Below are positions 57,658 to 63,442 of a DNA stretch of 64,000 nucleotides, one piece after another (the stretch's first letter is position 1; each line of letters starts with the position of its first letter). The stretch is taken from NCBI RefSeq assembly GCF_027943945.1, contig NZ_AP027141.1:1984001-2048000 (forward strand). Direction: 5' to 3'. The stretch is from Microbacterium terricola. Lineage in GTDB: Bacteria > Actinomycetota > Actinomycetes > Actinomycetales > Microbacteriaceae. The position numbers and the translations under genes are program-made. The notes under the pieces are model-generated. The model saw only the letters and a list, made by a program, of their open reading frames with translations. It had not been told where the DNA came from and did no database searches.

Positions 57658-57678
57658 TGCCCCTGGAGGGACTCGAAC
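57658..57678 (-). other. tRNA 3'-end remnant, putative att site
   Basis: Read on the minus strand the 21 nt are GTTCGAGTCCCTCCAGGGGCA: a T-loop (TTCGAGT), the 3' half of a T stem, seven acceptor-stem bases and a discriminator A. The 5' part of the tRNA is missing; to the right the sequence is unrelated. This is what remains at the distal end when an element integrates into a tRNA gene. Confidence 0.6.
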
Positions 57679-60066: not shown

Positions 60067-61338
60067 GTGCTATCCAACCAGGAGATCGCCGCGCTCATTG
60101 AGGGCGGATATGAGATTCGGTCCGTCGAGTTCAAGGGGCCAGGCTCCATCAACGATCCGGAGTTCGTCGCGAAGATCGCGCGAGCCGCGCTGGCGCTCGC
60201 GAACCAGCGGGACGGCGGGTCCATAATCATCGGTGTCGACGAGGTGGATGAGGCCCGCTCCGGACTCACCGCGGAGCAGCTTATCGAGTGGCTCGACTAC
60301 GACAATGTCTCCGACAAGTTGAACAAGTTTGCCGACCCGCCTCTCCGACTCGACCGCGCTGGCCGCCAACTCTCGAATGGTAAGGACGTGGTGGTCCTGC
60401 TAGTCGCGGAGTTCGACGATATCCCCGTGCTCGCCGCAAGAGACTTCCCGCGTCATATCCAGCGTGGACAGCTCTACACTCGGTCGTTCCGCAAGCCGGA
60501 GAGTTCGGCCAGCCACACACAGAACGAATTGCGCGCCGTTTTGGAACTCGCGACGCAAAAGCAGGTGACGAAGTTCATGTCGCTCGCCGCGGCCGCGAAC
60601 CTCACCACGGGCGGCGTGCCGACCGCACAATCGCGCTACGAGGACGAGTCCGCGGATTACCTGGCCGATGCTGACATCTCGGACATCACGACGGCCGCTC
60701 ACTTCAAGTTCACAATCCGCCCCCAGGAGTTCCGTGCGGAGCGTGTCGACTACAACGCGATTGCCTCGCTCATACGACGCGCAGCGCTGCATCTGCGCGG
60801 TTGGCCCTACCCGTTCGTGTCCCGCCCGGCGCAAGGCGCCTCGTGGGTGACCGAGCAGGAAACGGTGATGCACCGTGAGGCCTGGGTCGCGTTCGAGAGC
60901 GGACAGTTCCAGTCGTGGCACGCGCTGCCTCTTGACGGGCGGCATGTATACGACGGGGGAGCGGACGCGAAACCCGGTCACGGGTACTTCCCGCTTTGGC
61001 AGCCCGTGACCGACTTCACCGAGGTTCTGATGTTCGCACAGCGACTGCAGGGTGCAGTCGCCCCGGCGGAGCCCTACCAAGTAACGTTCGAGCTCATCGG
61101 CGCGAAAGGATGGGAACTAGTCCCGGGAGACCGCCGCTGGCAACCCTTCTACGACGAGCACCGACTGCAGACGTCGGCTTGGGAGCGCACGGTTCAGCTT
61201 CCCGCGGGTGGCGGTCCGCGTTCCGGCCGCGAACTGGCCCTCACTCCCAGCCTCCACCTGCTCCGGCGGTTCGGCTGGGCGGGGGCGAGCGAGGAGGTCG
61301 TCAAAGCCGTGCAGGAGAGCGTCTTCGGGCCAGCCTGA
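60067..61338 (+). CDS. AlbA_2 (Schlafen-like) domain protein
   Basis: This 423-residue protein has an N-terminal AlbA_2 domain (about 1-135). The characteristic signs are SVEFKGPGSINDPEFVAKIARAALALANQRDGGSIIIGVDE (about 19-59) and VVVLLVAEFDDIPVLAARDFPRHIQRGQLYTR, with the E-F-K motif that in Schlafen-type proteins belongs to the nuclease or nucleotide site. The remaining 280 residues hold no domain I recognise; they include many W, F and H residues (REAWVAFESGQFQSWHALP). AlbA_2 proteins are found as regulators and in bacterial defence. A TACGTT box 6 nt before the GTG suggests a leaderless transcript. It converges with the two-gene pair downstream. Confidence 0.82.
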   Translation: MLSNQEIAALIEGGYEIRSVEFKGPGSINDPEFVAKIARAALALANQRDGGSIIIGVDEVDEARSGLTAEQLIEWLDYDNVSDKLNKFADPPLRLDRAGRQLSNGKDVVVLLVAEFDDIPVLAARDFPRHIQRGQLYTRSFRKPESSASHTQNELRAVLELATQKQVTKFMSLAAAANLTTGGVPTAQSRYEDESADYLADADISDITTAAHFKFTIRPQEFRAERVDYNAIASLIRRAALHLRGWPYPFVSRPAQGASWVTEQETVMHREAWVAFESGQFQSWHALPLDGRHVYDGGADAKPGHGYFPLWQPVTDFTEVLMFAQRLQGAVAPAEPYQVTFELIGAKGWELVPGDRRWQPFYDEHRLQTSAWERTVQLPAGGGPRSGRELALTPSLHLLRRFGWAGASEEVVKAVQESVFGPA

Positions 61339-61463: not shown

Positions 61464-62867
61464 CTAGTCGCCTGTGAGCGTCTCGATATCCTCGTCAGTC
61501 AGAGGACGTCGCACCGCCAGAAGTGCAGCGGCGCGGACGTGGAAGTCAACGGTCGCCTTCCCGGTCCCGACTGCACCTTCAAACTCAACCTTCACCTCGC
61601 CGGCGTCCGCATCGCCCTTCTCTCGAACGGTGACTGCCGCGACATGGAAGTCGTCTTTGATGGTTCCGCGGATCCGCTCAACATCTTCGCGGAGCGTGTC
61701 AGGGTCCTCGTTGCCGACCGCCAACCGACGGCTGAGTCCATGAAGCTCAATGGCGGTGAGGTCGAATGCACGCAGGGGCGCCGACAGTTCATCCCAGCGG
61801 GCGTCCGTACCGTCGTCGCGCGCCCGGATCTTTCGGGCGTCAGTTCCCATCCAAAGCGCCCAACGGTGCACATCGGCCACAAGACGGCCGTTTCGAACCT
61901 TCCACGACGGTGGCAGTTCGGCGTGTTCGTCGTTCGCCACTTCCGTGTTCGGAAATAGTGCCGAACGGCCAGCCGTCATTGACTTCGTGGCACGCGCGAT
62001 TATCGGTGTCAGATCAAGGTCAGCCAGAGAAGGAGACATTGATTCGAGGCGCTCGAGGGTCAGCATCGACGCGAGCGCCTCCCAGACCTCCGAGGACTTC
62101 ACCTCGCTTGCGCGCCTCAAGATATATGGCAGCACGACTCGTAGTTCACCGTCGAGGAGAGGTTCCTCCCGCAACAGCCCCAACGTCTGTTGACTGGGGC
62201 GCTCCTCGAAAAACTCCACAAGGAGACCAGCAGTGCGATTCAAGCGCTCGGCGGTTGCCCCCGTGAACAGCTGGCGAACGGTCGATTGAAACGCCTTCAG
62301 AGCTTCGAGCGGTTCGTCTTCCTCGACGGCGACAATTCGATCCGCGGCCTTATCACTGAGGAGGCCCCTGCCGCCGCGAACGATGTTTGCTCGTACCAGC
62401 CCTGACAGCTGGGTGTCCCGCTGTTCGTCCCGCGTCAGCGTGGGAATGCGTGAAGTAGCGGATACCTCGGTTGCCAGTGTCCGGGTCGACGCCGGTAGCT
62501 GCTTGCGCAGATCAGCGAGCACCTTCTTCTTCTCGTCTCCCAGCCCAATCAGCAGCGGCTCCTGGTCGGCGAGCGACTCGACGTCCTCAGCAGCAACAAC
62601 GCTGGACAGCGATCCGCGGATGAAGATCCGGCGCTCCTGCTCTCGACCTGCCTCCCGCCAAACAGCAATGAGGTCCGGCGCGTAGCTGTGATTGAAGTAG
62701 TCGGTCTTCTTGATCTTGAGGGTCGGGTCGAGGCGCTTGAGTTCATCGATGACGGCCGTCTTGACGCCCTCGATGACATCGGCCGAGCGCGAATATGCCC
62801 TGGCCTGACGTACTGCTGACACAACGGGCGCTTCGTTCTGAGCGCCGCCCTGAACATCGATGGTCAT
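61464..62867 (-). CDS. Uncharacterised element protein, partner of nuclease-like gene
   Basis: This 467-residue protein begins MTIDVQGGAQNEAPVVSAV. Its N-terminal domain (about 15-110) includes KKTDYFNHSYAPDLIAVW followed by RRIFIRGSL, which has the strand order of a PD-(D/E)XK core but with Arg where the E-x-K element would be. The middle part (150-330) is helical, with DKAADRIVAVEEDEPLEAL, and the C-terminal part is mixed, ending DEDIETLTGD. I know no named family that fits. The ATG (62867) overlaps the stop of the upstream gene (ATGA), so both are made together. A role in defence is an inference from the location and partner. Confidence 0.72.
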   Translation of the reverse strand: MTIDVQGGAQNEAPVVSAVRQARAYSRSADVIEGVKTAVIDELKRLDPTLKIKKTDYFNHSYAPDLIAVWREAGREQERRIFIRGSLSSVVAAEDVESLADQEPLLIGLGDEKKKVLADLRKQLPASTRTLATEVSATSRIPTLTRDEQRDTQLSGLVRANIVRGGRGLLSDKAADRIVAVEEDEPLEALKAFQSTVRQLFTGATAERLNRTAGLLVEFFEERPSQQTLGLLREEPLLDGELRVVLPYILRRASEVKSSEVWEALASMLTLERLESMSPSLADLDLTPIIARATKSMTAGRSALFPNTEVANDEHAELPPSWKVRNGRLVADVHRWALWMGTDARKIRARDDGTDARWDELSAPLRAFDLTAIELHGLSRRLAVGNEDPDTLREDVERIRGTIKDDFHVAAVTVREKGDADAGEVKVEFEGAVGTGKATVDFHVRAAALLAVRRPLTDEDIETLTGD

Positions 62868-63442
62868 GCTTTGCCCTTCCGGTTCAACTTCGCTTCGATC
62901 ATGTTGAGTTCCTTCGGCGTCAGCGTGAACTCTTGCTGCCGCTTGTTGTAGACCAGCAGCCACACCCTGTCGGCCATCAAATCCAAGACTTCTTCGTCGA
63001 TTGGGTTGCCGTCGAGCAGTCCCGTCGTATCCGCCTCTAGTGCAGCCTTGATCTGGGATCGCTTGGTCAGCTTCAGCCATTTCTTCTGTGCGAACGGGTA
63101 CGTCGTAACCCACATGAACTGCCACCGGGGGTCCTGGGTGCGGGAGATCTCCGCCGCCGTCGCGCTGTATGCGATCGCCAGGAAGTCCTGGTAGTCCTTC
63201 GCCTGGCTACCGACGGAGGTGTAGGACTTATTCTCTACATAGAGCATGGACTTGGACTGGTAGATGTGACCCTTTAGATCGAACGTCTGCAACCCTCCGT
63301 CCAGGCAGCTAATGGTGCACTCGGACGCCCAGTCGTAGGCGTCGAAGTTCAGCTCGATGTGCGTTGTACTCTCTAGCCACCGCTTAGTGCGAAAGACGCC
63401 TTTACGTCCCTCTTCATGAGCGGACTCTGCGCGCAGCGCCAC
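62864..63442 (-). CDS. PD-(D/E)XK nuclease-like protein (192 aa)
   Basis: This protein is the first gene of a two-gene unit. The GTG at 63442 is chosen because GGAGG lies 4 nt upstream and the likely conserved start (EEGRKGVFRTKRWLE) follows; the frame continues further upstream without a supported start. GRKGVFRTKRWLES is similar to the first helix of Mrr/RecB-type nucleases. TFDLKGHIYQSKSMLYVENKSYTS then gives the Asp and the E-x-K of a PD-(D/E)XK active site. The rest is helical, with QFMWVTTYPFAQKKWLKL. DNA or RNA cleavage is plausible but inferred. Its stop overlaps the start of the 467-aa gene by 4 nt. Confidence 0.68.
   Translation of the reverse strand: MALRAESAHEEGRKGVFRTKRWLESTTHIELNFDAYDWASECTISCLDGGLQTFDLKGHIYQSKSMLYVENKSYTSVGSQAKDYQDFLAIAYSATAAEISRTQDPRWQFMWVTTYPFAQKKWLKLTKRSQIKAALEADTTGLLDGNPIDEEVLDLMADRVWLLVYNKRQQEFTLTPKELNMIEAKLNRKGKA

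What the first reader, a model, noticed from the sequence alone, without database searches (positions are those of the whole stretch)
61464..63442. Uncharacterised two-gene nuclease-like module on an integrated element
Two genes coupled by an ATGA overlap encode a 192-aa protein with a PD-(D/E)XK-like core (Asp in TFDLKG, then VENK) and a 467-aa partner whose N-terminus looks like a related but degenerate core (YAPDLIAVW ... RRIFIR). They lie beside an AlbA_2/Schlafen-like gene, on DNA that starts at a tRNA remnant. A nuclease plus a larger partner at a variable locus is a common form for anti-phage systems, and I can match this pair to no named one.
Basis: partly seen in the sequence, partly recalled or inferred. 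Interest (0 to 1): 0.72.

Follow-up and report, generated by a model that had tools for sequence, protein, structure and literature searches.

The report
Mobile two-gene nuclease-and-partner module
Two tightly linked bacterial genes, one for a likely DNA-cutting enzyme and one for a larger partner with a worn-out copy of the same kind of fold, travel together on mobile DNA and often lie near known anti-virus genes, so they are probably an unnamed defence module; this is inferred and untested.

Summary
Window 62864-63442(-) encodes a 192-aa protein (P1) and 61464-62867(-) a 467-aa protein (P2), overlapping by ATGA, in a Microbacterium genome. They lie on a 34.8-kb island bounded by a tRNA-Arg repeat, with a tyrosine integrase and, beyond the window, a complete type I BREX set. 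P1 keeps Asp and Glu-x-Lys in 29 of 29 relatives; its modest AlphaFold model has the PD-(D/E)XK strand order, and its best, weak fold matches are defence nucleases (Cap4, LmuA, Avs3). P2's N-terminus is predicted with the same strand order; its best, weak matches are restriction enzymes (FokI first), with [FY]-x-[RK] where Glu-x-Lys would stand. In 30 of 30 distinct loci both genes share a strand, in 26 with a possible overlapping start. The same 12 of 366 Microbacterium genomes hold both full-length genes. Recognised defence genes lie within 5 kb in at least 9 of 27 loci. No Pfam, NCBIfam, PHROGs or PADLOC model names the window proteins. Most likely: a two-subunit restriction-type nuclease without NTPase or own methylase; P1 cuts, P2 binds DNA and licenses cutting. 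Fold, pairing and context are computed; function is inferred. New variant of a known kind.

The parts
62864..63442 (-). P1, 192 aa, predicted PD-(D/E)XK nuclease
   Evidence: D55, E70 and K72 invariant in 29 of 29
63278..63280 (-). P1 Asp55 codon (TFDLKG), predicted catalytic
   Evidence: invariant 29 of 29; between strands 51-54 and 56-59 of the model
63227..63235 (-). P1 E70-x-K72 codons (VENK), predicted catalytic
   Evidence: E and K invariant 29 of 29; end of strand 66-71 in the model
61464..62867 (-). P2, 467-aa partner: degenerate nuclease-like N-terminal domain, helical middle, strand-rich C-terminal part
   Evidence: its ATG overlaps the stop of P1
62466..62786 (-). P2 residues 28-134: predicted helix-strand-strand-strand-helix-strand core with T-x2-F-N-H-x3-P-D and [FY]-x-[RK] where E-x-K would stand
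60067..61338 (+). neighbour, not part of the conserved module: AlbA_2/Schlafen domain protein, 423 aa, convergent
   Evidence: Pfam E=2.3e-6; clustered only with L003
59955..63587 (.). block shared at 90.7% DNA identity with M. telephonicum: P1, P2 and AlbA_2 gene; no further alignment in the stretches compared
57658..57678 (.). attL: 21-bp copy of the 3' end of tRNA-Arg(CCT), left end of the 34.8-kb island

Best explanation
P1-P2 is a horizontally spread two-subunit restriction-type nuclease carried on islands, plasmids and viral (prophage-like) contigs. P1 is the catalytic PD-(D/E)XK subunit (D55, E70, K72, divalent metal). P2 carries a catalytically dead domain of the same general fold plus two uncharacterised parts; it is taken to bind foreign or modified DNA and to recruit or license P1, so that cutting needs both. 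No NTPase motif is conserved in P2 and no methyltransferase is constantly linked, so self/non-self discrimination should come from a DNA feature such as a phage modification or structure. Computed: motif, strand order, pairing, coupling, mobility, defence context. Inferred: cleavage, complex formation, what P2 recognises, anti-phage role.
For: P1: Asp, Glu and Lys invariant in 29 of 29; model with helix, three strands, helix, strand; Foldseek ranks 1-6 and 10 are Cap4 chains, 7 LmuA, 9 Avs3, E from 8.6e-3. P2: pLDDT 79-92 over residues 11-80; ranks 1-6 are FokI, MspJI and Ecl18kI, best E 0.056, FokI probability 0.85-0.99. Pairing: 30 of 30 distinct loci on one strand, 21 with a possible start giving a 4-bp overlap and 5 a 1-bp overlap; the same 12 of 366 Microbacterium genomes hold both full-length genes; P1 and P2 distances correlate r=0.90 against at most 0.27 in 2000 permutations (plain co-inheritance would also give this). 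Context: BREX on the same island; recognised defence genes within 5 kb in at least 9 of 27 loci; 188 and 236 PADLOC families matched in 121 and 97 neighbour proteins against 42 in 131 control proteins. Spread: starred branches force at least 4 changes of the Microbacterium label on the P1 tree.
Against: No Foldseek match reaches E 0.001 and TM-scores are low. The P1 model has mean pLDDT 58 and residues 1-45 are below 50. No activity, interface or target is shown. P1 and P2 show no sequence-profile similarity. Three contigs of the viral collection carry the pair. In 17-18 of 27 loci no defence gene was recognised within 5 kb, though only ten neighbour proteins were scanned one by one. PADLOC family counts are inflated by redundant models hitting a few proteins, and the control regions also gave matches.
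Confidence: 0.48

Rival explanations
1. Abortive-infection pair: P2 senses an infection signal or holds P1 in check, and released P1 degrades host or total DNA, killing the cell.
For: P1's best weak fold matches are Cap4, LmuA and Avs3, known to me as effectors of abortive-type systems. A small effector gene is followed by a larger coupled gene.
Against: No NTPase, cyclase or signal-binding family recognised in P1 or P2. In locus L013 a P1 gene with intact motif stands beside a P2 split between two frames, which a toxin with an obligate inhibitor would not readily tolerate; one case, possibly a sequencing error.
Confidence: 0.27
2. Accessory nuclease of neighbouring modification-based systems (BREX, type I, III, ISP, Pbe), using their marks as self signal.
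For: Modification-system genes recognised near 7 of 27 loci; at L052 and L009 on the same strand 23 and 91 bp away, at L050 on the same strand with two small ORFs between. Auxiliary REases next to BREX are described (PMC12839542, section 35 part 1).
Against: The partner system differs from locus to locus, and none was recognised within 5 kb in 20 of 27 loci (not every neighbour was scanned singly). In the window's island the pair is 13.4 kb from BrxL, outside the BREX genes.
Confidence: 0.12
3. Housekeeping nuclease of mobile elements (replication, recombination or transfer), not defence.
For: Found on plasmids, on an island with a TrwC-type relaxase, and in three viral-collection contigs, two of which have replication- or packaging-type neighbours by eye.
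Against: No match in 50,697 phage records; only 9 of 72,556 plasmid records, one of them at E=0.6; neighbours differ between loci.
Confidence: 0.1

Closest known systems
Cap4-type PD-(D/E)XK effector nucleases (CBASS Cap4, Lamassu LmuA, Avs3 N-terminal nuclease)
   Same: Best fold matches of P1; Asp and Glu-x-Lys motif; defence context.
   Different: No match of the window proteins to any Pfam or PADLOC model of these; no conserved NTPase motif in the partner; the fold match is weak. That these carry PD-(D/E)XK domains and have SAVED, SMC or STAND parts is recalled.
Heterodimeric type IIS endonuclease R.BspD6I (small subunit ss.BspD6I plus large subunit Nt.BspD6I)
   Same: Small catalytic protein plus larger DNA-binding partner on which it depends (PMC6261011, passages); FokI, another type IIS enzyme, is P2's first fold match.
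   Different: The large subunit of BspD6I is itself an active nickase, and the small one works only when the large one is catalytically active; P2 lacks Glu-x-Lys.
Auxiliary PD-(D/E)XK REases of BREX loci
   Same: PD-(D/E)XK protein on the same island as type I BREX; such auxiliary REases are reported as common (PMC12839542, section 35 part 1).
   Different: The pair is outside the BREX genes here. That paper counted only nucleases in or next to the core loci. The passages and section seen do not describe this pair; its supplements were not seen.
BrxU, a GmrSD-family type IV enzyme on a BREX island
   Same: A second restriction enzyme beside type I BREX (PMC8565348, abstract and outline).
   Different: BrxU is a nucleotide-using ParB plus HNH protein; no conserved NTPase motif in P2.
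Orc/CDC6 neighbourhoods with an inactive plus an active REase
   Same: Active REase coupled with an inactive REase-like domain (PMC10853773, passages).
   Different: There the inactive domain is inserted in an AAA+ ATPase; a Walker-type pattern occurs in only 2 of 29 P2 relatives.

Membership tests
PD-(D/E)XK nuclease superfamily (P1) | Asp followed by Glu-x-Lys | tested here: met
   29 of 29 relatives; 14 residues between Asp and Glu in the window protein, more in several relatives
PD-(D/E)XK nuclease superfamily (P1) | helix-three strands-helix-strand core with the motif on strands 2 and 3 | tested here: met
   model of modest confidence: mean pLDDT 58, blocks of residues 51-110 at 59-80 apart from the block 41-50 at 50
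PD-(D/E)XK nuclease superfamily (P1) | significant structural match to a solved member | tested here: inconclusive
   best E 8.6e-3, Cap4; none at 0.001
PD-(D/E)XK nuclease superfamily (P1) | nuclease activity | not testable with these tools
   needs purified protein
inactive PD-(D/E)XK domain (P2 N-terminus) | same strand order with lost catalytic residues | tested here: met
   H28-46, E51-54, E66-72, E75-84, H90-98, E105-108; where Glu is expected stands F or Y in 27 of 27, where Lys is expected R (24) or K (3); the expected places are my inference from the strand order
inactive PD-(D/E)XK domain (P2 N-terminus) | significant structural match | tested here: inconclusive
   ranks 1-6 are restriction enzymes but best E 0.056
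CBASS Cap4 / Lamassu | Cap4/LmuA sequence family with cyclase or SMC partner | tested here: not met
   no such Pfam or PADLOC match up to E 10 for P1 and P2; no Walker motif conserved in P2
Heterodimeric type IIS restriction enzyme (BspD6I type) | active nicking site in the large subunit | tested here: not met
   no Glu-x-Lys at the expected place in P2, 27 of 27
Heterodimeric type IIS restriction enzyme (BspD6I type) | own linked methyltransferase | tested here: inconclusive
   none among the eight L002 island proteins scanned with Pfam or the AlbA_2 gene; PglX of BREX is 18 kb away; small ORFs nearby were not scanned; 7 of 27 loci have a modification system near
Type I BREX component | encoded within or next to the BREX genes | tested here: not met
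   13.4 kb from BrxL; six core genes present without it
Type IV (modification-dependent) restriction | cuts only modified DNA | not testable with these tools
   needs an assay
Type II toxin-antitoxin | partner needed to tolerate the effector | tested here: inconclusive
   one locus with intact P1 and split P2 (L013)

The most novel reading that the evidence does not exclude
An unnamed immune system in which a catalytically dead restriction-nuclease domain (P2, with its invariant T-x2-F-N ... P-D ... W ... R signature) acts as the DNA sensor or clamp that licenses a separate Cap4-like nuclease (P1), with neither NTP hydrolysis nor a dedicated methyltransferase, and which is shuffled between BREX, type I, III, ISP and phosphorothioate-linked islands.
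Probability: 0.4. Interest if true: 0.65.

Novelty: new variant of a known kind. Interest (0 to 1): 0.5.

Why it matters
If true, it adds a compact two-gene defence module of Actinomycetota that the model libraries searched here miss, and shows a pseudo-nuclease paired with an active nuclease as separate coupled genes. It makes testable how such a pair tells self from foreign DNA without a methylase or an ATPase. It also names concrete residues to mutate.

Tried and rejected
Rejected: AlbA_2/Schlafen gene as third component (clusters only between window and L003). P1 and P2 as detectable paralogues (no similarity). Known system by sequence: none for the window proteins in Pfam, PADLOC, NCBIfam or PHROGs up to E 10, apart from a lipase-chaperone hit at E=0.15 for P2. 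Of the relatives, 38 proteins (19 P1 and 19 P2) against Pfam and PADLOC up to E 0.1 gave only single-member hits: tetratricopeptide repeats in one (best E 5.6e-8), JetA 0.0017, Sm_like 0.011, REase_II 0.031, Specificity_I 0.038, DpnII 0.05 and others. Solved relatives by sequence: none credible, best E 0.34. Papers: searches of an open-licence library showed, in listings and starts of abstracts, no description of this pair; accession numbers of six homologues occur in no paper there. Viral fold search for P2: best E 0.12, with VRR-NUC and other nuclease-named proteins among weak hits.

Dropped rows: duplicates L030 (=L027 contig), L040 (=L003), L041 (=L004), L065 and L066 (=L029 and L028). Loci with a short P1 and no P2 found (L012, L051, L054) and L013 (P2 split) were not used in the alignments. 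The 27-row alignments A10 and A11 leave out L013, L055 and L059 of the 30 distinct pair loci. The neighbour scan used 218 proteins of at least 130 aa within 5 kb in 27 loci; window, L013 and L059 were not in it. The control used 131 of 187 proteins from 19 regions chosen by hand; 25 of its 42 matched families were displayed, as were 25 of 188 and 25 of 236 for the neighbours. The ten neighbours scanned singly were chosen by eye after reading, so 9 of 27 is a lower bound and not a blind count.

Full report
What is there. The window lies in a complete 3.25-Mb genome whose nearest named relatives at this locus are Microbacterium telephonicum and M. oryzae. On the minus strand, P1 (62864-63442, 192 aa, GTG start with GGAGG four bases before it) and P2 (61464-62867, 467 aa) overlap by ATGA. 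The pair occurs once in the genome. GC content is 0.57 and 0.62 against 0.709 for the window. dN/dS between the window genes and the two nearest relatives is 0.03-0.11. These are therefore real, constrained and probably imported genes.

The island. A 20-base stretch of the remnant occurs twice in the genome, 34.8 kb apart, with no further site at up to two mismatches. The match extends to 21 bp, and the far copy is the 3' end of an intact tRNA-Arg(CCT) next to a phage-integrase family protein. Between the two copies, beyond the window end, lie BrxA, BrxB, BrxC, PglX, PglZ and BrxL, each with strong PADLOC matches. Also present are a kinase-like protein, a large AAA/RNase H-like protein, an NYN plus OST-HTH protein, a TrwC-type relaxase/helicase and a DUF4357 protein. 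The pair is 13.4 kb from BrxL.

Relatives. P1 had no match in 50,697 phage records. Frequencies for P1, own genome included: 13 of 366 Microbacterium, 3 of 396 in the order and 8 of 394 in the class with a profile, and 2 of 396 in the phylum with the single sequence. The eight plasmid hits other than the one at E=0.6 are all in Arthrobacter or Streptomyces/Kitasatospora.

Pairing. In the 36 sources examined (duplicates included) a P2 was found in 33; L012, L051 and L054 hold a short P1 without P2, and in L013 an intact P1 stands beside a P2 split between two frames. In the 30 distinct pair loci (L013 included) both genes are on one strand. In 21 a possible P2 start gives a 4-bp overlap, in 5 a 1-bp overlap, in 3 the start lies within 11 nt by other spacing, and in L013 none was found. 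The reciprocal test with a P2 profile over the same 366 Microbacterium genomes found 13 genomes. Twelve are the same as for P1; the thirteenth of each list (G697 for P1, G609 for P2) holds a short fragment only. Pairwise distances of P1 and P2 correlate at 0.90, against at most 0.27 in 2000 permutations, as co-inheritance as a unit would give. On the P1 tree, starred branches force at least four changes of the Microbacterium label, which points to horizontal transfer, though several branches are long. P1, P2 and the AlbA_2 gene share a 3.6-kb block at 90.7% identity with M. telephonicum, and the alignment ends there.

P1. The Asp and the Glu-x-Lys are invariant in 29 of 29; 14 residues separate Asp from Glu in the window protein, more in several relatives. 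The AlphaFold model from 7 sequences is modest (pLDDT 58, pTM 0.61) but shows helix 5-25, strands 42-45, 51-54, 56-59 and 66-71, helix 77-101, strand 108-113. Foldseek's best matches are Cap4 (E 8.6e-3), LmuA (0.047) and Avs3 (0.069), with one unrelated chain between them at rank 8. Lower hits include SgrAI, Kpn2I, BsoBI, BstEII, R2 retrotransposon proteins and bunyaviral L proteins, mixed with clearly unrelated proteins; no match reaches 0.001. That Cap4, LmuA and Avs3 carry PD-(D/E)XK nucleases is recalled.

P2. The model is better (pLDDT 74.7, residues 11-80 at 79-92). It shows helix 28-46, strands 51-54, 66-72 and 75-84, helix 90-98, strand 105-108, then a helical middle (about 172-290) and a strand-rich end (301-435). 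Foldseek ranks 1-6 are FokI, MspJI and Ecl18kI chains; E is 0.056 or worse, TM-scores are low, and from rank 7 on unrelated proteins are mixed in. T55, F58, N59, P64, D65, W70 and R79 are invariant in 27 of 27, H60 in 26. Where the catalytic Glu would be expected stands F or Y (27 of 27), and where Lys would be expected stands R (24) or K (3). P2 therefore looks like a dead nuclease-type domain.

Neighbours. Neighbourhoods differ between loci: apart from P1 and P2, no protein cluster (BLAST at 1e-8, genes picked by a simple coding measure) spans more than 4 of the 30 pair loci compared. Recognised defence genes within 5 kb: type I R at L052, ending 23 bp before the P1 ORF, with M and S upstream; a type ISP enzyme 91 bp after P2 at L009 (annotation); PbeA and PbeC at L050; type I R at L028; M and S of type I or IIG kind at L048; type III M and R at L053; S and M at L008 (S by annotation); OLD/GajA-like ATPases at L010 and L045; and weakly a TIR-type protein at L004. 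That is 9 of 27 loci without L004, 7 of 27 with a modification-linked system. PADLOC at 1e-10 matched 188 families in 121 and 236 in 97 neighbour proteins, against 42 in 131 control proteins from 19 regions of the same genomes or of genomes holding fragments. The control families shown were mad3 (3 proteins), PycC (2) and single hits of PD-T4-6, mad6, RTasPolA, MkoA and the like. Families are not proteins: redundant models hit the same protein many times. The contrast favours defence islands but is not a blind count.

Mechanism. Shown by computation: pairing, coupling, mobility, motif and strand order. Inferred: P1 cuts DNA and P2 targets or gates it. R.BspD6I is a precedent for a small catalytic subunit that depends on a larger DNA-bound partner, but there the large subunit is itself active and must be so for the small one to work (PMC6261011, passages). 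Inactive REase domains are proposed to act as sensors (PMC12839542, passages), and auxiliary REases are common near BREX (same paper, section 35 part 1). The main rival is abortive infection, in view of the Cap4-like matches; L013 speaks weakly against P2 as an obligate inhibitor. Linkage to BREX in this genome may be simple cargo sharing.

Verdict. The finding is real and, by the libraries and papers searched, unnamed. It is a new variant of a known kind: nuclease plus partner defence module, with a dead nuclease domain as the probable partner. Function is untested.

Noticed in passing
L064:2869-15843 (genome C1:2060868-2073842), beyond the window end: Complete type I BREX gene set (BrxA, B, C, PglX, PglZ, BrxL) on the same tRNA-Arg island.
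   Followed up: yes
L064:1607-2872: Kinase-like protein directly downstream of BrxL, best PADLOC models mad6 and PD-T4-6, possibly an accessory of BREX.
   Followed up: partly
L002:8942-10060: 372-aa protein with 'KIDIALIFSG...GIEAKFD', a possible further PD-(D/E)XK nuclease by eye; no Pfam or PADLOC match at 1e-3.
   Followed up: partly
L002:14380-17934: 1184-aa RNase H-like plus AAA helicase protein on the island, matching PADLOC MkoA models only in part.
   Followed up: partly
L013:8992-11089: Intact P1 next to a P2 split between two frames on a Streptomyces plasmid; bears on the toxin-antitoxin rival, may be a sequencing error.
   Followed up: partly
L050:4560-9762: PbeA and PbeC (phosphorothioate-linked defence) with two small ORFs directly upstream of P1 on the same strand.
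   Followed up: partly
L027 and L029: Pair on contigs of the viral collection next to replication- or packaging-type genes by eye, so it may also be prophage-borne defence.
   Followed up: no
G417 C1:665857-666153: A second, partial P2-like fragment about 1 kb after the full pair.
   Followed up: no
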